DNA from: a virus | DNA: 64,000 nt | Virus record (IMG/VR): IMGVR_UViG_3300027721_000734 | Span: 49,477-113,476 of that record | Direction: 5' to 3' (one strand) | Shown: positions 33,566 to 50,834 of the stretch, one piece after another | Layout: the number at the start of each line of letters is the position of its first letter | Position numbering within the stretch: position 1 is the stretch's first letter | Notes under the pieces: model-generated | Databases searched by the model: none | What the model was told of the DNA's origin: nothing | The model's input: only the letters and a program-made list of their open reading frames with translations | Position numbers and translations under genes: made by a program

Positions 33566-33976
33566 GGGGATGACCGGTATTGATTGGTATTATTAATTAT
33601 TCGGGGCACGTAGTGAGATGTTCTCTATCACTTAAATCTATGGGTAACAAAATTCTAAATGGCAACATTTTAAACAAAATGGCTCTAGTAGGTCTTGTAC
33701 GTCAAGATGAGCTTGTGAACGTAGCGTAAGCAAACACACATTAGGGTCGGTGGACAGATACCCAGTAACAGGAGTCCAATAAGGTGTAATACCACCCGAA
33801 GATGTATTAGGAGTCTCGTTCAGGGAGCTACTTCAACACAAGTGAACCCGACACAGTTATTGGTAACGATGTTAAAATAGGAACCAAATATTTGTCAGTT
33901 GAGAATTAATTGAATAAACGTGTAGTCCTTAATTTTTAAGGTAAACAAGAAAGGGGTTCGATTCCCCTCATCTCCA
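33566..33976 (+). ncRNA. ssrA: Transfer-messenger RNA (tmRNA)
   Basis: The 5' end GGGGATGACCGGTATTGATTGG and the 3' end GGGGTTCGATTCCCC-TCATCTCC-A form the tRNA-like part. GGGGATG pairs with CATCTCC with one G-U, and the T-arm is perfect. The section GCACGTAGTGAG matches Bacteroidota tmRNA. An internal frame begins after TAGTA, as in the resume-codon context, at GGT 33691 and ends at TAA 33727-33729. It encodes GLVRQDELVNVA. CCA is not encoded. The RNA is about 411 nt, with its own promoter and a terminator at 34006. It rescues stalled ribosomes with SmpB, encoded 500 bases away. Confidence 0.92.
33691..33729 (+). other. Proteolysis-tag reading frame of the tmRNA
   Basis: The 12-codon frame GLVRQDELVNVA plus TAA. 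The Gly resume codon follows CTAGTA, matching the conserved TAGTN before resume codons; Bacteroidota tags also start with Gly. The end NVA differs from the usual LAA end. An alternative start three codons upstream (GCT) is possible. Confidence 0.7.
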
Positions 33977-34005
33977 CTGGTGAGTCCCATCACCTCCACA
34001 CAAAA

Positions 34006-34490: not shown

Positions 34491-34519
34491 AAAAAAAGGG
34501 ACTATTTCAAGTCCCTTTT
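34491..34519 (-). terminator. Terminator overlapping the smpB stop
   Basis: AAGGGACTTGAAATAGTCCC followed by a T-run on the minus strand. The upstream arm lies inside the last smpB codons. Confidence 0.7.
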
Positions 34520-34939
34520 CATATCCCTCTCTATGTCCCGAGATTTTATGGTATCTCGTTTATCGTGTATCTTCTTCCCTTTGGCAAGAGCAATTTCCAT
34601 CTTAATCAATCCGGTGTCGTTTATGAAGACGCGATAAGGAACGATTGTGGTACCGTTGATTAACTCATTCTCCAACTTAATAAGTTCTTTTCGTTTGGCT
34701 AATAGTTTTCTATCCTTTACGGTCTCGTGGAACGACCCAAACCCATAATCGGAGATGTTCATCCCCTTTATAAATAACTCCCCGTTATTGAAATAGCAAT
34801 ACCCTTCAGAGATGGACACCTTTCCCTGACGAATGGACTTTACCTCTGAACCAACTAGTTTGATTCCCACAATTAGTGTCTGTAGGAATGAATACTCAAA
34901 CTTGGCTTTCTTATTGACTATGTTAATTGATTTTTTCAT
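34502..34939 (-). CDS. smpB: SsrA-binding protein SmpB
   Basis: A 145-residue protein with the full SmpB pattern. NKKAKFEYSFLQTLIVGIKLVGSEVKS is the start of the OB barrel, followed by GKVSISEGYCYFNNGELFIKG, then KLLAKRKELIKLENEL. ALAKGKKIHDKRDTIKSRD is the tmRNA-binding and decoding-centre tail. The length is normal. SmpB carries tmRNA into the empty A site. It lies 0.5 kb from the phage ssrA gene on the opposite strand, with a -7 element (TATCTTTG) about 5 bases before the ATG, and is thus nearly leaderless. Confidence 0.93.
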   Translation of the reverse strand: MKKSINIVNKKAKFEYSFLQTLIVGIKLVGSEVKSIRQGKVSISEGYCYFNNGELFIKGMNISDYGFGSFHETVKDRKLLAKRKELIKLENELINGTTIVPYRVFINDTGLIKMEIALAKGKKIHDKRDTIKSRDIERDMKRDLK

Positions 34940-35911: not shown

Positions 35912-36795
35912 GGCTAAATACGATGAGAATACTCGTCTTACTAAGAATCTTTTGAAGGATTATTGTTTCCCTTCGTTTCCATCAACTTTTGGTTGATAAT
36001 TCTTAACACCGGTTATTTAGGATAACCATACCTTAGGGTCTTAATTACTCTCCTGATACTCAATCCTATTCAAGTTTGCGACCTGATTCGGGGTTCGACC
36101 CCCTATAAGTTTTTCACAGAAATCTAATCAGTCTTGCGGACATCTTAGGCTACCGACAGCCGGTAACTAAGTTGGTGTCTTACATCAAAACCCGGTAAAC
36201 ACTTTTGCTCTTTTCTGTTTAGTTTTTCACCATATGAAAATAGTTAATGTGTTGTGGATGAATCAAAGAAGTGGTCTACCATAAGCTCCATAACCTTTTG
36301 GGTTAAAGAATACTAAACTTCTTCGTGAGATATCCCTATCTCGGTAATTTAAGAATTCTTCGAATCAAAATCTTGGTAGATTTTTGATAAGGATAATGAC
36401 AGCACCACCTGTTACTTATCTTGTCTTTCGACTTTAAGATTTCTCTTGTACTGGAACTCGCAATTATAAGGTTGGATAACCTTACTTCTCACATAGACCC
36501 TATGAGTTATTTTTATTGGTGTTCCCACCTCAAACAGACAATCCACATTGCCCGTTCAGTTTTCCATTTCCCTACGAAGTCATCCTCGGTACTACAGGCT
36601 CACTGATATCTCACTTGTATACTCGAGCCCCATTTCTGAAGCCGCAAACCTATTAACACAATAGGTTCACTTTACATCAATTTTCATTGACTTATTTAAG
36701 GATGATATACCACCCATTATCGTTTTTTACACCACCGAAGTGGGTAAAGGATAATCTAAAATTTCTAAGAACGTCTTTAAGGTTTCCCTTAATTG
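35880..36795 (-). ncRNA. Large structured noncoding RNA (about 0.9 kb), GOLLD/ROOL-like candidate
   Basis: There is no plausible ORF, but there is a strong promoter at 36801-36830 and a nine-pair terminator at the 3' end. Read on the minus strand it is full of stable hairpins with GNRA or UUCG loops: CCACTTCGGTGG, AACCTATT-GTGTT-AATAGGTT, GGTG-GGAA-CACC, AAGGTT-ATCC-AACCTT, GTC-GAAA-GAC, AAAATCT-ACCA-AGATTTT, GAGATA-GGGA-TATCTC, CTTAG..ACCG-GCTGT-CGGT..CTAAG and ACGAG-TATT-CTC-A-TCGT. Size, ornateness and a place beside phage tRNA genes fit the giant phage RNAs GOLLD and ROOL. Membership was not verified by a covariance model. Confidence 0.75.
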
Positions 36796-36800
36796 TTTTA

Positions 36801-36830
36801 CAAAGGTAAGTGATTTTTTTCATTTGTCAA
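36801..36830 (-). promoter_or_regulatory. Bacteroidota promoter of the large RNA
   Basis: On the minus strand TTG (36830-36828), 19 bases, TACCTTTG (36808-36801). Confidence 0.8.
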
Positions 36831-36861
36831 GCACTTTATAAAACTTTTTTTTAAAAAATAA

Positions 36862-36953
36862 AATGTGTTGTGTAAGCTCTACCACTGCAGCTAAACCTTG
36901 GTCACCAGGATTACGGTTGTTGGAATCGAACCAACGACTCTACACGACACATT
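36862..36953 (-). tRNA. tRNA-like gene with permuted order (T-arm before D-arm), copy 1
   Basis: In RNA order: AATGTGTC-GTGTA, then GAGTC, then T-arm GTTGG-TTCGATT-CCAAC, AACCGTA, a linker, CAAGGTT, TA, D-arm GCTGCAGTGGTAGAGC, T, then TACAC-AACACATT. GTGTA/TACAC fits an anticodon stem with exact canonical spacing: five variable bases before the T-arm and one base after the D-arm. AACCGTA/CAAGGTT pair at five of seven positions as an acceptor. The RNA ends lie where the anticodon loop should be and pair as an eight-base extension. This is the layout of a circularly permuted tRNA; a decayed element is the alternative. Confidence 0.55.
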
Positions 36954-36955
36954 TA

Positions 36956-37049
36956 TGGTGGTATCAGATGGGCTCGAACCACCGGCACAGAGACTTTCGG
37001 GACTCCTGCTCTACCAAGGGAAATAAATCTCCCACTGAGCTATAATACC
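36956..37049 (-). tRNA. tRNA-like gene with extended D-loop and encoded CCA
   Basis: Acceptor GGTATTA/TGATACC (7 pairs), A73 and CCA encoded. T-arm GGTGG-TTCGAGC-CCATC. The D-stem GCTC/GAGC encloses a 25-base loop that itself can form GGGA/TCCC. The anticodon region GAGTC-CCGAAA-GTCTC gives a 6-base loop without U33, so identity (perhaps GAA) cannot be set. It lies between the two permuted-order genes. Confidence 0.55.
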
Positions 37050-37060
37050 ATATAAAATAA

Positions 37061-37135
37061 TGTGGGTGTATGCTCTACCATCTGAGCTACGGATTTGAAA
37101 CCGGAGGGATTTGAAACCTCGACACAACACCCACA
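37061..37135 (-). tRNA. tRNA-like gene with permuted order, copy 2
   Basis: The ends TGTGGGTGT/ACACCCACA pair perfectly. In RNA order a T-arm-like GAGGT-TTCAAAT-CCCTC comes first. Then come CGGTTTC and AAATCCG, which pair at five of seven positions like an acceptor with no linker, then TA and a canonical D-arm GCTCAGATGGTAGAGC. One base and TACAC follow. The order matches copy 1. Position 53 is mismatched and the T-arm motif is duplicated in the acceptor region, so decay is possible. Confidence 0.45.
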
Positions 37136-37165
37136 CCATTACTTCAATGAACTTATTTTCTTCTA

Positions 37166-37196
37166 CAAAGATAATACATTTATTTTAATCTGTCAA
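37166..37196 (-). promoter_or_regulatory. Bacteroidota promoter before the odd tRNA cluster
   Basis: TTG (37196-37194), 20 bases, TATCTTTG (37173-37166) on the minus strand. Confidence 0.75.
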
Positions 37197-37214
37197 ATAT
37201 TTTTTGAAATTTTT

Positions 37215-37424: not shown

Positions 37425-37446
37425 TTTTTTTTATTTTTTAATTTGT

Positions 37447-37538
37447 AGTCAGGAGAGGAATCGAACCTCTCTACAGGGAGCTACCCGTCATCCATGACCT
37501 TCCATCGGACTCGAACCGACCTTGTATCCAACCTGACT
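37447..37538 (-). tRNA. Composite tRNA-like element with two T-arms
   Basis: The ends AGTCAGG/CCTGACT form a perfect 7-pair acceptor helix. A canonical T-arm AGAGG-TTCGATT-CCTCT is next to the 3' side. A second perfect T-arm-like hairpin GTCGG-TTCGAGT-CCGAT lies near the 5' side where the D-arm should be. No normal anticodon arm is seen. It may be a recombinant of two tRNA genes. Confidence 0.5.
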
Positions 37539-40183: not shown

Positions 40184-41209
40184 CTACAACTTTTTAAACT
40201 CCGGTCTGATTAAGTTCCATATGATTTCAGAATAATCTTTTTTATCGAACATCCTAAATAATATCCCTGATAAATGTTTATTTTGTTGTGACACCCACTC
40301 AGCGTATTCTTTTCTATCTGTGATAGGTTCTTTGTCGTTATATTTACCATACATTTTACCATCAAATTTTTTACCAGCATCTTCAGATATTTGGAAATAA
40401 AAATACCTTAATTCTTTTACATAATTTTTAATTTTGGTGTAAAATTCATCCGGAACATCTTTTAATAATTCCATCACATCTTCACCATTTTTTAGATATT
40501 CCCAAACTCCGGTTGTTGATACATTGGTCATAATTTTATGAAGACGCAAATACTCAACACCTTTAACTTTAACTCTATCCCCATTTGAAAACTTCACCAC
40601 AAACCCTTCTTGGTTGTTTTTAACCATTTCTTTAAGTTCTTTGAAGTCCTTAATACCATCGTATTTTTTAACCACATCAAAACCCCACTCATCCCAATCT
40701 GACATGTCATAATCTTTACCCCAATTATCGAATGCTCCCAATAGGACCAGTTTCTCTTCACCTTTATAATCCAAAACAATTCTGTTTTCCGGATAGATAA
40801 TCTCAAAACAAAATGTCATATGTCTGAACATTATGTCTGTATTGTATTTCTTTAAGAGTTCTCTCGCTTTGATTGCTTGGTCTGATGTAAATGAACCACG
40901 AGTGGCAACCACCCATTGACCCTGATACCAAAATACAATACCTAATGAACCGTCCATTTTTTCATAAACCTCAAAGGTTTCAGTTGGAGTATATTTCCCT
41001 TCCTCAATATTAAAGAACTTTTTAAATGGTGTCGCAACAATATCTCCTTTGTCGTCAGTAACTAAACCTCTACACATAAGAGTCACCTCATCCCACAGGT
41101 TCTCGTACTGAACTTTCTCAGTATAATTCCATATGGTTAATGGAAGTGATGGATGTACTTGTTTGTAAAGTAATCCGTCTTCGTAATATTTGTTTAGTTT
41201 TTCTAACAT
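40184..41209 (-). CDS. RNA ligase, T4 Rnl1 type
   Basis: A 341-residue protein. Nucleotidyltransferase motifs: I YEKMDGSLG (Lys84 is the AMP-accepting residue), Ia-like VVATRGSFTS, III-like FEIIYPENRIVLDY, IV EGFVVKF and V KVKGVEYLRLHK. MCRGLVTDDKGDIVATPFKKFFN before motif I is typical of Rnl1, which seals tRNAs cut in the anticodon loop. It is the last gene of a cluster that also holds a second ligase, a kinase and a phosphoesterase. Confidence 0.9.
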   Translation of the reverse strand: MLEKLNKYYEDGLLYKQVHPSLPLTIWNYTEKVQYENLWDEVTLMCRGLVTDDKGDIVATPFKKFFNIEEGKYTPTETFEVYEKMDGSLGIVFWYQGQWVVATRGSFTSDQAIKARELLKKYNTDIMFRHMTFCFEIIYPENRIVLDYKGEEKLVLLGAFDNWGKDYDMSDWDEWGFDVVKKYDGIKDFKELKEMVKNNQEGFVVKFSNGDRVKVKGVEYLRLHKIMTNVSTTGVWEYLKNGEDVMELLKDVPDEFYTKIKNYVKELRYFYFQISEDAGKKFDGKMYGKYNDKEPITDRKEYAEWVSQQNKHLSGILFRMFDKKDYSEIIWNLIRPEFKKL

Positions 41210-41210
41210 C

Positions 41211-41540
41211 TTATTTTATTTTTTTCAAATTTTCTTCTAATCTACTTAAGAATGATTCTTCACCATCATCACCGGATAATAACCAATCCACTCGTTGAGC
41301 GTATTCTTGAGCGATATGAAGAGCTTTAACCGCTTCTTTCATCTTCTCAATAACCTCATCCGGATATTTGTAATGGAATTTATCTTCAGGGTATTTTTTA
41401 TACCATTCAGGGTCTCTCCAACCTTCGTCTTTAATTTCTTTGGGTGTTTTCTTAACACCATTCTTAATAATTGTTTCCTCTATTTGGTCTGCAATACGAC
41501 CAATATTATATTGCTGGTAATCAAATGCCCCTCCACTCAT
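41211..41540 (-). CDS. Conserved-looking small phage protein (MSGGAFDY type)
   Basis: A 109-residue protein. The start MSGGAFDYQQYNIGRIADQIE is a hallmark of a small phage/bacterial protein family of unknown function. The rest is helical with RVDWLLSGDDGEESFL. It sits between the two RNA ligase genes with gaps of 1-3 bases, so it may assist RNA repair. Confidence 0.7.
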   Translation of the reverse strand: MSGGAFDYQQYNIGRIADQIEETIIKNGVKKTPKEIKDEGWRDPEWYKKYPEDKFHYKYPDEVIEKMKEAVKALHIAQEYAQRVDWLLSGDDGEESFLSRLEENLKKIK

Positions 41541-41543
41541 CTC

Positions 41544-42638
41544 TTATTTTTCGTTTAATAAAAATTTATTTGATATTACTTTGAATGAGATTTTTCTATC
41601 CAAACTTCTAATTACAACACCCTCTCTATCGAAGTTGGGGTTCAAATCTGATTTACCATCAGCCATCTTTAATAACTCATCAATCGTGTCCGGTAAATGG
41701 AAATGTGTGTCTAACACCGGTACGGTCTCTATACCTAATTCAGTCACCAGTGATTGAAATAAAGATAATGAATCATACTCTTGTAAATCAATATGAAACA
41801 GGTTGAAGAATCTTACGGTTTGTCCTTTGATTTTATATGGGTTCCCTTGGATACCCTCACCAATAAGTTCTCCTTGAATAGAGATGTTCGCGTTCTCACC
41901 ATATTCTCTCATTTTGTTTTCCAAATCCAATTCACGAGCAACTTTCCAAAATGTGTTACCTTCAGTTTCCAATAACTCCAAATTACGAGAACAAACACCA
42001 AACTCTCCGTTATTGTAGTAGAATGTTGAGGAAGAACCATCTAATTTTTCTGTTACATAGTAAGTATGTTTCTTCATTTCTTCATACTCGGATGCCAAGT
42101 TCTGAATTCTCTCTTCATCAGTTTTACGAATGAAACTTGGGAACATACCTTTAACCTTTCCGGCTAGTTCTGCTGGAATTGGTGGTTCGTACTTAACGAT
42201 TCCCAATTTTTCAGTCACATCAGTTCCCGGAACCAATTCAATCATATCTGATGGTGAAATAACGGTTCTATTTGGTTCCAAAGCAACATTCTCATTTAAT
42301 AACGTTTCAGAAACTCTATAACCATAACCTTCAAATAAAACAGATAAAGGTAAAATTAATCCTTGGGATACCTGCCCGCGAAGTTTCACGGTCCTCAAAC
42401 GGAATCCTTCTTCATCACCCATTTTCTTATATGAACTCTTACGTAAGAATTCAAATTCTTCTCTGATTGGTAAGAATGAATCAATCTCACAATATACAAC
42501 CAAATCATTTATTCTGTGACCAACTTCTTTTGCCACAACCACTTTCCAACCATCCACGATTGACAATTCAATCATATCGGCCCCGGGAATTTCTTGAATA
42601 TCACTAATTCTTCTAATACTAGCTAACTTTCTTTCCAT
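41544..42638 (-). CDS. RNA ligase, DRB0094/Rnl5 type
   Basis: A 364-residue protein. An N-terminal OB-like domain (KLASIRRISDIQEIPGADMI; residues about 1-150) is followed by the ligase core. Motif I is VTEKLDGSSSTFY (Lys near residue 196), then FGVCSRNLEL, NISIQGELIGEGIQGN, EGVVIRS and SFKVISNKFLL. An N-terminal OB domain before the ligase core marks the DRB0094 family, which seals 3'-OH/5'-phosphate nicks in duplex RNA. It is coupled by a TAATG-type overlap to the upstream gene. Confidence 0.88.
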   Translation of the reverse strand: MERKLASIRRISDIQEIPGADMIELSIVDGWKVVVAKEVGHRINDLVVYCEIDSFLPIREEFEFLRKSSYKKMGDEEGFRLRTVKLRGQVSQGLILPLSVLFEGYGYRVSETLLNENVALEPNRTVISPSDMIELVPGTDVTEKLGIVKYEPPIPAELAGKVKGMFPSFIRKTDEERIQNLASEYEEMKKHTYYVTEKLDGSSSTFYYNNGEFGVCSRNLELLETEGNTFWKVARELDLENKMREYGENANISIQGELIGEGIQGNPYKIKGQTVRFFNLFHIDLQEYDSLSLFQSLVTELGIETVPVLDTHFHLPDTIDELLKMADGKSDLNPNFDREGVVIRSLDRKISFKVISNKFLLNEK

Positions 42639-43021
42639 TATATCAATTCAAATTTTGTTAATGTATCTCTTCTTTCTTCTTTGTTAATACCCAATAAATA
42701 ATTCTTAACATTACTCACAATTGTCTTACTATAAATCTGAGCAATAGCACTGAATGTTATAGTTTTTTTTACAATATGGTCGGGATTACTTTTTAACCTA
42801 TCGTTTTTATAATCACTTATCGCTTTAAGGATGTTGTTTTTATAACCACTAGACCCATCAACTAAATTAATAGTGTGTTCGGTAAATTGGCCATTTACAA
42901 CAATTCTCAATAAATGAACTTTCTTAGATTTACAAAAGGTTATGACGTATTCGTCATAACCCATATGTGTAAATCCGGTATCGGTTTTTTGGTATTTAGC
43001 TACCTTGAAGATGTTCTCCAT
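42638..43021 (-). CDS. Hypothetical protein in RNA-repair cluster
   Basis: A 127-residue mixed alpha/beta protein (YDEYVITFCKSKKVHLLRIVVNG; VKKTITFSAIAQIYSKT). Start and stop overlap both neighbours by single bases. No motif is recognised. Context suggests a link to RNA repair or to the gene upstream. Confidence 0.65.
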   Translation of the reverse strand: MENIFKVAKYQKTDTGFTHMGYDEYVITFCKSKKVHLLRIVVNGQFTEHTINLVDGSSGYKNNILKAISDYKNDRLKSNPDHIVKKTITFSAIAQIYSKTIVSNVKNYLLGINKEERRDTLTKFELI

Positions 43022-43392
43022 TATACTCTTACCATTTTTTTAGGGTCTTTACCCAATTTTTTCAAAATCTCATTTCTCTCGTATGTGTCTTGGTCAATGA
43101 TTGATTTACTCAATTTCATCAGTTCCATTTTAGACATTTCACCACACTCGTTATACACTTCTGATTGTAGTTTTGAGTAATCACTCAAAGCTCTTTCAGA
43201 CTCACCCATTAATCCACGGAAGTTGGCTGATTGCATTTTCAACGAACCTAATGAAGAACCAATCCATTTAGCCAATGAAGTTTCATCTTTTAAATACAAA
43301 CCGTAAGTTCCGTATTTTGTGTAATAGAACGCTAAGATGTTATCTTCTTTTGTCCATTCGTGTAATCCTAAAGTTTTGCTACGTGTTGCCAT
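43021..43392 (-). CDS. Hypothetical helical protein
   Basis: The start at 43392 (MATRSKTLGLHEWTKEDNI) is chosen because the promoter at 43441-43470 places transcription start just before it. The 123-residue protein resembles short HTH-like or SAM-like helical folds in its first half (ILAFYYTKYGTYGLYLKDET; LAKWIGSSLGSLKMQSANF). It could be a DNA-binding protein. It heads the ligase operon. Confidence 0.65.
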   Translation of the reverse strand: MATRSKTLGLHEWTKEDNILAFYYTKYGTYGLYLKDETSLAKWIGSSLGSLKMQSANFRGLMGESERALSDYSKLQSEVYNECGEMSKMELMKLSKSIIDQDTYERNEILKKLGKDPKKMVRV

Positions 43393-43440
43393 AATTTTTA
43401 AATTTGTAAATGTTAATGTATTTGTTACTATTTGATGGTA

Positions 43441-43470
43441 CAAAGATACTACTTTATTTTAATCCACCAA
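43441..43470 (-). promoter_or_regulatory. Bacteroidota promoter of the ligase operon
   Basis: TTG (43470-43468), 19 bases, TATCTTTG (43448-43441), minus strand. Confidence 0.8.
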
Positions 43471-43475
43471 ATTTT

Positions 43476-43892
43476 TTACAAAGAAATTTCAAATCTTTTT
43501 CGCATTAGTTCTAACTTATCTTCCGGAACCCCGTGTTCATTGACTCCTCCGTGTCTGTTTTCTACGATAAGTGAGTAAGTTTTATAACCGTATTTTTCAG
43601 CCAAGTCAAAATATGGTTGCATTTCCCATTCCTGAGTGAATGTATTAGAGACCACAATTTTAGAAACCCCCGCTGATAAAAATTCTATTTCAGGATTCTC
43701 ATCCCAAGTCATTGCTTCCTCCACAGAGTCTTGACACCATTGATGAGCATCTTTTAATCTAGTAATATCAAATTGATATCCACCATCTTCCATAAAATAC
43801 ATATCAGCCTCAAGATGAGTTCCACCGATTGATTTCGCCAACGTTGATTTTCCGGAACCACAAATTCCACGAACTAAAAATAACTCTCTCAT
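43476..43892 (-). CDS. P-loop kinase, polynucleotide-kinase-like
   Basis: A 138-residue protein. Walker A FLVRGICGSGKSTLAKSI (residues about 4-21) is followed by HLEADMYFMEDGGYQFD and VVSNTFTQEWEMQPYFDLAEKYGYKTYSL, the pattern of small zeta-toxin/PNK-like kinases such as the N4BP2L group. An Arg-rich lid is short. A 5'-OH RNA kinase would complete an RNA-repair set with the two ligases. Protein-level specificity cannot be read from sequence. Confidence 0.75.
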   Translation of the reverse strand: MRELFLVRGICGSGKSTLAKSIGGTHLEADMYFMEDGGYQFDITRLKDAHQWCQDSVEEAMTWDENPEIEFLSAGVSKIVVSNTFTQEWEMQPYFDLAEKYGYKTYSLIVENRHGGVNEHGVPEDKLELMRKRFEISL

Positions 43893-43893
43893 A

Positions 43894-44175
43894 TTAATTT
43901 TTTAAATATTTTACAATCTTCTCAATTCCGTCAGTATCATCCGGATTTATGATGAACTCATCAAATGCTCCGTACCTACATTGATACCCAAAAATATATT
44001 TTAAACCATAACTAACTCTTTCCCAAAAAGGTCGTTTAGTTAAATGAGTATGGATATAAACCATTGGATATTTTACACCATCAATTTCATCTTCATCATA
44101 TAAAACAACCATTTGATGTTCCGTATTATGACAGGAACAAATGAATAAATCTTTTTGTGTTTGTTTAATTTCCAT
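43894..44175 (-). CDS. Small conserved-looking phage protein
   Basis: A 93-residue protein with DLFICSCHNTEHQMVVLYDED and the central SYGLKYIFGYQCRYGAFDEFI. The Cys and His residues (CSCHNTEH, C near residue 70) might bind metal. Proteins of this style occur in many Bacteroidota phages (from memory). It overlaps the upstream gene by 11 bases. Confidence 0.65.
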   Translation of the reverse strand: MEIKQTQKDLFICSCHNTEHQMVVLYDEDEIDGVKYPMVYIHTHLTKRPFWERVSYGLKYIFGYQCRYGAFDEFIINPDDTDGIEKIVKYLKN

Positions 44176-44668
44176 GTTTTTTTAATCGTTTTTTTATTTT
44201 TTTTAACACTATTTTATCATTCGCAGCATCTTTTAGTGAATTATATTTAGAGTAGGATTCTTTAGTTAATTTTAATAAATCAACACTTTCTTCATCCGAT
44301 AAATCAAATAAAATATGACCACAAATTACTTTTGTTATAAATCTATAAGTCGTAACTGTTGTCCAAAATTTCTTTAATCCAAAATATTTTGTCTTATAAA
44401 TCTCATCCGCTGAACTATAATCCCACTGCGTATAAACTCTAATATCGGGTTCACCATCATCAAATTTTAAAGTAAACTCCATTATATCGGGACTTATGTG
44501 TTCTGATGTGTCGTCATTTTCTTTAACTTTAAACCGCTTTGTAATGTATGGTGATGGAGTATAACTACCACAATATATGTGATTAGCAAAATAACAATTG
44601 TGAAAAATATTTTCACCACCAACATTCTTTAATTCTTTATGAATTAATTCTAAAATTTTTTCTTTCAT
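44165..44668 (-). CDS. Hypothetical protein
   Basis: A 167-residue protein: helical N-terminus (KEKILELIHKELKNVGGENIF), beta-rich centre, basic C-terminus (KKIKKRLKKHG). It is one base from the phosphoesterase gene upstream and overlaps the gene downstream. No family is recognised. Confidence 0.6.
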   Translation of the reverse strand: MKEKILELIHKELKNVGGENIFHNCYFANHIYCGSYTPSPYITKRFKVKENDDTSEHISPDIMEFTLKFDDGEPDIRVYTQWDYSSADEIYKTKYFGLKKFWTTVTTYRFITKVICGHILFDLSDEESVDLLKLTKESYSKYNSLKDAANDKIVLKKIKKRLKKHGN

Positions 44669-44669
44669 C

Positions 44670-45332
44670 TTATTTTCTTTTTCGACCTTCGTCAGTTATC
44701 ATATCATCTGTGTGATGGTCATCATCCATATTTGATTTAATTTCTCTCAATTTTACAATCTTAATAACATTGTCTAATGAGTATGGAGCAAAAAACAATG
44801 AACCATCAATACCAACATCCATTCTACGACCCTTACCAAAGATTTTACCCGTTGGGAGATGTACATGTCCATGGAGGTGAATATGACCCTTATTTAACCC
44901 ATCCCAAGAATCTATAGGATAGTGCATTAAAACCAAAGTATCAAATTTATACATCAATTTTGTGTAATGATTAACACTAGCAAATAATTCCTGACAATCA
45001 CTTCGGTTATTTTCAATGTGATGGTCGTGATTACCTAATATAAGGTGAATCTCTTGACACACAATTCTGTCTCTAAAAATTTTAATATTTTCAAAACCAC
45101 CAAAACTCCAATCACCAAGATGAATTAACACATCGTCTTGACCAACAACACTATTAATACCATTTACAATGGCGTCATTCATTTGACCAATTGAATCAAA
45201 ATCTCTTGTTTGGTGAATTGGAACACTTCCATCTGGAAGCCTCCATTCGGTTACACCACGACATATATTCTTATGTCCAAAGTGTGTATCGGATATAATC
45301 CAAACTTTTCTATCGTTATCTATCTTAATCAT
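44670..45332 (-). CDS. Calcineurin-type metallophosphoesterase
   Basis: A 220-residue protein with all metal motifs in order: SDTHFGHKNI, LIHLGDWSFGG, LILGNHDHHIE, LMHYPIDSWDG and HLHGHVHLPTG. The fold removes phosphate groups from nucleic acids or small molecules. In this cluster it may act on RNA ends (2',3'-phosphate) before ligation. The Asp-rich C-terminal tail is unusual. Confidence 0.88.
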   Translation of the reverse strand: MIKIDNDRKVWIISDTHFGHKNICRGVTEWRLPDGSVPIHQTRDFDSIGQMNDAIVNGINSVVGQDDVLIHLGDWSFGGFENIKIFRDRIVCQEIHLILGNHDHHIENNRSDCQELFASVNHYTKLMYKFDTLVLMHYPIDSWDGLNKGHIHLHGHVHLPTGKIFGKGRRMDVGIDGSLFFAPYSLDNVIKIVKLREIKSNMDDDHHTDDMITDEGRKRK

Positions 45333-45374
45333 ACTGCAAATCTAATTCTTTTTTTCCAAACCAATAATGTTTGG

Positions 45375-45845
45375 TTATTTAATAGGTATTCGAACCCTAA
45401 CACAGGTCTCAGGTTGTTTTTCATTTTTTAAGAAATTGTTAATCCAACCACAAATATTATGTGCTCCGACAGGATTTGCCGAATGAACATAAACTAACGG
45501 AAAAATAAATTTACTATCCTTTTTTTCATTTTTAGTCATATTAACTCTTTCCGGAAATTCGTTGTAAAATTGATTAACTAACCATTTAGCAGCATCATAA
45601 CCAGTTTTCTCATTAATATTGTTATAGTCCAAAGTGTAGTTTGGAGAAACATTATTAAAATACTCTTTCATTGCAGAATCACCTAAATCGTGGTCCAAAG
45701 ATATAATATCAATATTCTCCAACCCAATCTTATTAACTTGTACAACAAATTCATCGTAATCTCTAACTACAATCCAATCATCACCAGTAGGAGTTCTCAC
45801 ATCATCAAGATATATTCTACAAGGTGGTTTCATATTATTTTCCAT
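45375..45845 (-). CDS. Cyclic-phosphate-processing receiver-like (cREC) protein
   Basis: A 156-residue protein. CRIYLDDVRTPTGDDWIVVRD, then IDIISLDHDLGD, GYDAAKWLV and VYVHSANPVGAHNICGWIN match the receiver-fold family predicted to process cyclic phosphates in RNA repair (Burroughs and Aravind). The Asp pairs take the place of the receiver metal site. It stands upstream of the phosphoesterase, kinase and ligase genes. A downstream in-frame ATG (residue 5) is an alternative start. Confidence 0.75.
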   Translation of the reverse strand: MENNMKPPCRIYLDDVRTPTGDDWIVVRDYDEFVVQVNKIGLENIDIISLDHDLGDSAMKEYFNNVSPNYTLDYNNINEKTGYDAAKWLVNQFYNEFPERVNMTKNEKKDSKFIFPLVYVHSANPVGAHNICGWINNFLKNEKQPETCVRVRIPIK

Positions 45846-50683: not shown

Positions 50684-50757
50684 ATTTTCCCGTCTTTCCG
50701 AGATGTCAACTACTTACCAATTAGCCTCATTGGTCAATCCTCTTATAGTCGATTTTG

Positions 50758-50834
50758 ATGGTAAGGTGGGATTCGAACCCACATCCTTTCGGCCAATTAA
50801 GACCGAACGCTTTCGCCGTTTGAGCTTCTTACCA
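50758..50834 (-). tRNA. tRNA-like gene with eight-base anticodon loop
   Basis: Acceptor TGGTAAG/CTTACCA (7 pairs), T-arm GTGGG-TTCGAAT-CCCAC. The anticodon arm TCGGT-CTTAATTG-GCCGA has an 8-base loop, and position 8 is A. TAA (Leu) is the most natural reading, but frame is uncertain. Confidence 0.6.

What the first reader, a model, noticed from the sequence alone, without database searches (positions are those of the whole stretch)
36862..37135. Two candidate circularly permuted tRNA genes
In both elements the T-arm comes before the D-arm. In copy 1 every spacing is canonical if the ends are joined in the anticodon loop: 5-base variable region, 5-pair anticodon stem GTGTA/TACAC, one base after the D-stem, and TA before it. 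The 3' and 5' acceptor halves follow each other and pair at five of seven positions in both copies. Permuted tRNAs are known from algae and archaea; I know of none described in a phage. The paired extension at the ends could be the processing site.
Basis: partly seen in the sequence, partly recalled or inferred. Interest (0 to 1): 0.85.

Follow-up and report, generated by a model that had tools for sequence, protein, structure and literature searches.

The report
Phage Y-RNA-like tRNA mimics
The two odd 'inside-out' tRNA elements are real, conserved RNAs, but they are most likely stripped-down versions of the known bacterial Y RNA tRNA mimic (YrlA) rather than working permuted tRNA genes; in this phage family they have lost the part that binds the usual partner protein and sit near tRNA-repair genes.

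Summary
On the minus strand at 36861-36954 and 37060-37136 there are two RNAs with the order T-arm, acceptor hairpin, D-arm, closed by one long helix where the anticodon stem would be, with canonical tRNA spacings. No other place in the window matches this descriptor; random controls gave 1 match in 20 windows. Copy 2 is conserved in about 40 related loci with compensatory changes, and its minimum-energy fold is exactly this shape.

The reading 'permuted tRNA genes' is not supported. Neither element has an anticodon loop, U33 or CCA. Circularised copies give no consistent anticodon, and the acceptor hairpin varies from 12 to 16 nt among relatives of copy 2. Both match Rfam YrlA, the tRNA-mimicking bacterial Y RNA (40.1 and 26.0 bits). 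Four viral records with a Ro60/TROVE gene carry YrlA cores beside it scoring 40-49 bits, the range of copy 2. Y RNAs have been reported in phages.

What may be new: this family keeps only the tRNA-like module, lacks the Ro-binding stem, and no Ro60 gene was found in 11 records. The modules sit in a small-RNA array upstream of GOLLD RNA, near RNA-repair genes. I favour a tRNA decoy; that function is inferred.

The parts
37060..37136 (-). Copy 2: minimal YrlA-like tRNA mimic. Outer helix 37136-37127 with 37069-37060; T-arm 37120-37104; acceptor hairpin 37103-37090; D-arm 37087-37072
   Evidence: Rfam RF02553 40.1 bits, E 4.6e-7 (below the gathering score of 69); alignment and covariation; MFE fold
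36861..36954 (-). Copy 1: second YrlA-like tRNA mimic. Outer helix 36954-36941 with 36874-36861; T-arm 36935-36919; acceptor hairpin and loop 36918-36894; D-arm 36891-36876
   Evidence: Rfam RF02553 26.0 bits, E 0.0055; alignment; descriptor hit
36956..37049 (-). tRNA-like element (called tB here) between the two mimics, with an extra hairpin in the D-loop and an odd anticodon loop
   Evidence: ARAGORN tRNA-???; Rfam tRNA 36.7 bits; conserved in 43 loci
37166..37197 (-). Promoter-like site upstream of copy 2 (TTTG-N20-TATCTTTG, Bacteroidota type; the type is from my own knowledge)
   Evidence: sequence; sigma-70-like scan hit at 37196-37168 (total hits in the region not above shuffles); present at the same place in most array-bearing relatives
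35920..36325 (-). GOLLD RNA, conserved 3' domain, downstream of the array
   Evidence: Rfam RF02032 285 bits
36326..36790 (-). Probable 5' domain of GOLLD; a second promoter-like site lies at 36801-36831
   Evidence: conserved in 66 loci; position relative to Rfam GOLLD
40184..41209 (-). Rnl1-type RNA ligase (T4_1 family)
   Evidence: Pfam PF09511 2.9e-20, phrog_562 1.1e-69
41544..42638 (-). second RNA ligase with PHA02142 OB-fold
   Evidence: Pfam PF21189 and PF09414, phrog_968 1.8e-85
43476..43892 (-). polynucleotide-kinase-like P-loop protein
   Evidence: phrog_2071 ATPase 8.9e-37, phrog_505 polynucleotide kinase 2.1e-5; PF13671
44670..45332 (-). metallophosphoesterase
   Evidence: PF00149, phrog_547
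45375..45845 (-). cREC domain protein (predicted cyclic-phosphate processing)
   Evidence: PF20274 2.9e-19

Best explanation
Both elements are tRNA mimics of the bacterial Y RNA (YrlA) type, reduced to the tRNA-like effector module. The T-arm, a capped acceptor hairpin and the D-arm fold into a tRNA elbow on a continuous helix that replaces the anticodon stem-loop. The Ro60-binding stem is missing. They are probably made from their own promoter as members of a small-RNA array with a tRNA-like element between them; RNase P and RNase Z cuts at that element could release them (inferred). Most likely they act as decoys: they present a tRNA body without an anticodon loop or free acceptor end, and so occupy a tRNA-recognising enzyme during infection, either an anticodon nuclease of the host (whose damage the neighbouring RNA-repair enzymes would mend) or PNPase, the known partner of the YrlA tRNA-like domain. 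Shown: sequence, structure, conservation, family resemblance, missing Ro stem and missing TROVE gene in the records searched. Inferred: expression, processing and target. Identity as a YrlA-type mimic about 0.85; the decoy role about 0.35; the confidence below is for the statement as a whole.
For: Rfam YrlA aligns end to end with both; copy 2 at 40.1 bits stands 23 bits above the next place in the record (17.2). The same permuted core occurs in bacterial Y RNAs that Rfam accepts at 72-74 bits. In four viral records the YrlA hit (40.4-48.6 bits) lies beside a TROVE gene, the same score range as copy 2. No TROVE in the window's record or ten relatives, five of them 282-322 kb. Ro-stem signatures: all three in 0 of 27 family sequences. 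Compensatory outer-helix changes. Array order promoter, Y2, tRNA-like, Y1 conserved. RNA-repair genes 3-9 kb away. Literature: the YrlA tRNA-like domain is a substrate of DusA and TruB and binds PNPase (PMC8394870); it was proposed as a competitive inhibitor of an anticodon nuclease and is not cut by it (PMC7790460); some jumbo phages pair TROVE with RNA repair (PMC7824862).
Against: Both Rfam scores are below the curated cut-off of 69, and weak YrlA hits also occur in control genomes at E<=0.001, so the score alone is not proof; copy 1 at 26.0 bits is near that background (24.5 bits in a Lak phage). The copy 1 MFE fold disagrees in the acceptor and D regions. No expression, binding or target data exist. 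The RNA-repair cluster is near but not in the same transcript. All records are fragments or of unknown completeness.
Confidence: 0.6

Rival explanations
1. They are complete Y RNAs in function: the outer helix binds the host's Ro60/Rsr protein and tethers it to PNPase or another partner, although the Ro-binding sequence has diverged.
For: YrlA similarity over the full model length. YrlA-type cores with Ro-stem-like flanks occur in Bacteroidota genomes such as Hymenobacter, Pontibacter and Prevotella. SmpB relatives in Prevotella Lak phages suggest a Bacteroidota host.
Against: The conserved GCGAAUGC / CUUGUCGCC or CCGUAGA / UUGUUGCC stem is absent; no TROVE gene in 11 related records, whereas records with TROVE keep a YrlA beside it.
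Confidence: 0.15
2. Genuine circularly permuted tRNA genes: the ends are joined in the anticodon loop (by the phage RNA ligases), then RNase P and RNase Z cut between the acceptor halves to give a decoding tRNA.
For: Canonical spacings in both copies; two RNA ligases encoded nearby; Rnl1-type ligases seal anticodon-loop breaks (own knowledge).
Against: No U33 or consistent anticodon on circularised copies; continuous helix without bulge-helix-bulge; acceptor hairpin of 12-16 nt in copy-2 relatives with 3-4 pairs and no discriminator or CCA; many ordinary linear tRNA genes are already present.
Confidence: 0.05
3. Processing or structural elements of the small-RNA array (or of GOLLD): tRNA-like folds that stabilise ends or mark cuts, with no decoy role.
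For: They sit after the promoter-like site and just upstream of GOLLD; GOLLD often lies by tRNA islands and sometimes carries tRNAs in its linker (PMC12286853).
Against: GOLLD has its own promoter-like site, and copies come and go independently of GOLLD; capped acceptor hairpins are not standard RNase P or Z sites.
Confidence: 0.25
4. Decayed or rearranged tRNA gene pieces without function.
For: Copy 1 has mismatches in the acceptor stem and a poor fold there.
Against: Copy 2 keeps 85-100% identity in 43 loci while the GOLLD 5' domain beside it falls to about 75%; compensatory changes in the outer helix.
Confidence: 0.03

Closest known systems
YrlA, bacterial Y RNA (Rfam RF02553; Salmonella YrlA structure 6CU1 as cited in PMC8394870)
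   Same: T-arm, capped acceptor hairpin and D-arm in permuted order, tRNA elbow sequences, closing helix; near RNA-repair genes as in rsr-yrlBA-rtcBA
   Different: No Ro-binding stem, no TROVE gene found, two copies in a multi-RNA array beside GOLLD, scores below the Rfam cut-off
Circularly permuted tRNA genes (Soma 2014 as cited in PMC10085705; red algae and Thermoproteales from own knowledge)
   Same: 3' half of the tRNA encoded before the 5' half
   Different: No anticodon loop, no bulge-helix-bulge, no mature acceptor end
Two-piece (permuted) tmRNA
   Same: acceptor halves adjacent and joined by a loop in the precursor
   Different: no tag reading frame, normal-looking D-arm, full T-arm to D-arm core; the phage has a separate one-piece tmRNA candidate at 33566-33979
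GOLLD-linked phage tRNA islands
   Same: tRNA-like elements just upstream of GOLLD RNA
   Different: here permuted mimics rather than tRNAs, with their own promoter-like site

Membership tests
YrlA / bacterial Y RNA | Permuted tRNA-like domain (T-arm, acceptor hairpin, D-arm) on a closing helix | tested here: met
   for copy 2; weaker for copy 1 (26.0 bits, MFE disagrees)
YrlA / bacterial Y RNA | Score above the Rfam gathering cut-off (69 bits) | tested here: not met
   40.1 and 26.0 bits; but TROVE-linked viral YrlA hits also score only 40-49
YrlA / bacterial Y RNA | Ro60-binding basal stem with conserved sequence | tested here: not met
   alignments, (0 of 27 with all signatures); so I describe it as YrlA-like, tRNA-mimic module only, not as a full Y RNA
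YrlA / bacterial Y RNA | Ro60/Rsr (TROVE) gene in the same genome | tested here: not met
   none in own record or 10 relatives; records may be incomplete and the host may supply it
YrlA / bacterial Y RNA | Binding to Rsr and PNPase; DusA and TruB modification | not testable with these tools
   needs biochemistry
Circularly permuted tRNA gene | 3' half before 5' half with canonical spacing | tested here: met
   sequence
Circularly permuted tRNA gene | Anticodon loop with U33 after joining the ends | tested here: not met
   and sequence
Circularly permuted tRNA gene | Seven-pair acceptor stem with discriminator, processed to CCA | tested here: not met
   5 of 7 pairs in the window; 12-16 nt hairpins in copy-2 relatives
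Circularly permuted tRNA gene | Bulge-helix-bulge at the ends | tested here: not met
   continuous helix in copy 2; one mismatch or single-base bulge in copy 1
Circularly permuted tRNA gene | Circular intermediate in cells | not testable with these tools
   needs RNA sequencing or RT-PCR

The most novel reading that the evidence does not exclude
A phage family uses Ro-independent, stripped-down Y RNAs in a dedicated small-RNA array as anti-defence tRNA decoys that blunt anticodon nucleases (or PNPase), working together with an RNA-repair cluster.
Probability: 0.25. Interest if true: 0.8.

Novelty: new variant of a known kind. Interest (0 to 1): 0.5.

Why it matters
Y RNAs are usually discussed as Ro60 partners. 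A conserved phage lineage that keeps only the tRNA-mimicking half, without a detectable Ro60, separates the two functions and offers a natural test of what the tRNA-like domain does alone. If it is a decoy for tRNA-cutting defence enzymes, it would be an RNA-based anti-defence strategy. It also warns that permuted tRNA-like cores, if read without this comparison, can be taken for permuted tRNA genes.

Tried and rejected
1) Permuted tRNA genes: rejected after the circularisation test, where nine ordinary window tRNAs rotated and doubled were all recovered. 2) Tandem tRNA artefact: the T-to-D distance in copy 2 is shorter than two abutting tRNAs allow; many genome-contig hits of the generic pattern, however, are overlapping tandem tRNAs and were not counted as Y RNAs. 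3) Named phages: no match of the 781-base region; copy 2 gives only short, weak matches, mostly under annotated tRNAs. 4) Lak phages: only one weak hit, 24.5 bits. 6) The primary YrlA papers (Chen 2014, Wang 2018, Sim and Wolin 2018) are not held, so their content is cited second-hand. 7) The motif regexes are crude: only 20 of 120 genome hits show all three signatures, partly because that set includes tandem tRNAs. 8) The script to parse the tB element returned nothing, so its anticodon loop was read by eye only.

Full report
Setting. The window is part of a 113,476-base virus record. The elements lie on the minus strand just upstream of a GOLLD RNA (Rfam RF02032, 285 bits, 36325-35920 minus). 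Nearby are a phage SmpB and a tmRNA candidate. The host is unknown; the SmpB relatives in named phages include the Lak phages of Prevotella, and the promoter-like sites have the Bacteroidota form (own knowledge).

The observation. Both elements have T-arm, acceptor halves, D-arm, in that order, closed by a helix in the place of the anticodon stem. A descriptor of this architecture finds exactly these two places in the window and 1 in 20 random windows. ARAGORN does not call either.

Conservation. Copy 2 is found by blastn in 43 loci, copy 1 in 15 and the intervening tRNA-like element in 43. Loci from the two queries overlap, and many are the same contig; nine distinct copy-2 forms and five distinct copy-1 forms were aligned. 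In copy 2 the outer helix is GTGGGTGT/ACACCCAC in one group and GTGGACGT/ACGTCCAC in the other, with two Watson-Crick double changes plus a UA-to-GU change; 97% of cells pair against 30-60% when the partner is slid. The number of pairs with double changes alone is not above shuffles (197 of 500), but the cells with double changes and the covariation score are (0 of 500); with so few groups this reflects few events. The acceptor hairpin is 12, 14 or 16 nt with 3-4 pairs. Copy 1 has one compensatory D-stem change. Copy 2 folds as drawn; copy 1 only in the outer helix and T-arm.

What it is. A generic pattern for a permuted core with too short a gap for tandem tRNAs matched viral contigs and many bacterial genomes. 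Some hits are overlapping tandem tRNAs, but many have tetraloop-capped acceptor hairpins and a conserved flanking stem. Rfam names three such places, in two of the eight loci tested, YrlA at 72-74 bits, and the same model aligns to copy 2 at 40.1 bits (E 4.6e-7) and copy 1 at 26.0 bits (E 0.0055). In the search of the window's whole record the next best place after copy 2 has 17.2 bits; copy 1 was not listed there, presumably lost in the first look. The cut-off of 69 is not met. But four viral records with a TROVE gene have YrlA hits adjacent to it at 40.4-48.6 bits, so 40 bits is the range of TROVE-linked phage Y RNAs. Weak YrlA hits in control genomes mean the score must be read with the structure.

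What is missing. The Ro-binding stem is not seen in copies 1 or 2 or their relatives. No TROVE domain is found in the window's record or in ten related records, five of 282-322 kb; all may be incomplete.

Context. In 16 of 17 array-bearing relatives copy 2 is the first module after the promoter-like site; then come, in fixed order but each optional, module E, the tRNA-like element, module F, copy 1 and module D, then GOLLD. Three to nine kb away are an Rnl1-type ligase, a second RNA ligase, a polynucleotide-kinase-like protein, a metallophosphoesterase and a cREC protein, a set like those reviewed for jumbo phages in PMC7824862. In Salmonella Y RNAs lie within the rsr-yrlBA-rtcBA RNA-repair operon (PMC7790460).

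Mechanism. [quoted passage not shown] PMC7790460 proposes that it may competitively inhibit an anticodon nuclease, and reports that it is not cut by it. A module with the elbow but no anticodon loop, no free acceptor end and no Ro stem is what one would expect of a pure decoy. This is inference; no expression or binding data exist.

Not a permuted tRNA. Joined copies do not give a stable tRNA call, while nine ordinary window tRNAs rotated in the anticodon loop are all recovered when doubled (same call). There is no U33, and no acceptor end in copy 2, whose 7+7 acceptor bases abut directly.

Verdict. Real, conserved, new variant of a known kind; identity as YrlA-type tRNA mimic about 0.85 (higher for copy 2 than copy 1), decoy role about 0.35.

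Noticed in passing
window 36956-37049 (-): tRNA-like element with an extra hairpin in the D-loop and an anticodon loop without a clear anticodon (loop ...NNGAAA... read by eye); conserved in 43 loci.
   Followed up: partly
window 37445-37538 (-): ARAGORN tRNA-Pro call that contains a second T-arm-like hairpin (TCGG-TTCGAGT-CCGA) and a D-arm-like stretch before the real T-arm; conserved in 13 loci, Rfam tRNA-Sec only 20 bits.
   Followed up: partly
L027, L018, L048, L111 upstream of GOLLD: Three further RNA modules in the array, each bounded by complementary ends: D (CTGTGATAAGATA...CTTATCACAG, about 115 or 225 nt), E and F. L027 and L018 (which hold D and E) gave no Rfam match there; F was not tested.
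   Followed up: partly
window 33566-33979 (+) and 34502-34939 (-): Phage-encoded tmRNA candidate (73.7 bits) and SmpB.
   Followed up: no
window 50757-50834 (-): tRNA call with an odd anticodon loop, reported by ARAGORN as a four-base anticodon (taat).
   Followed up: no
window 40184-45845 (-): RNA-repair cluster: two RNA ligases, PNK-like protein, metallophosphoesterase, cREC domain.
   Followed up: partly
L250, L265, L292 (L250 and L265 are Lachnospiraceae): Minimal permuted T-arm/D-arm modules closed by TTGTGT/ACACAA-type helices, without Ro-stem flanks and followed by a second T-arm.
   Followed up: no
L232 (Chitinophaga pinensis): Two permuted modules in tandem, 74 nt apart.
   Followed up: no
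Rfam RF02553: The gathering score of 69 bits misses YrlA copies that lie beside TROVE genes in viral records (40-49 bits).
   Followed up: partly
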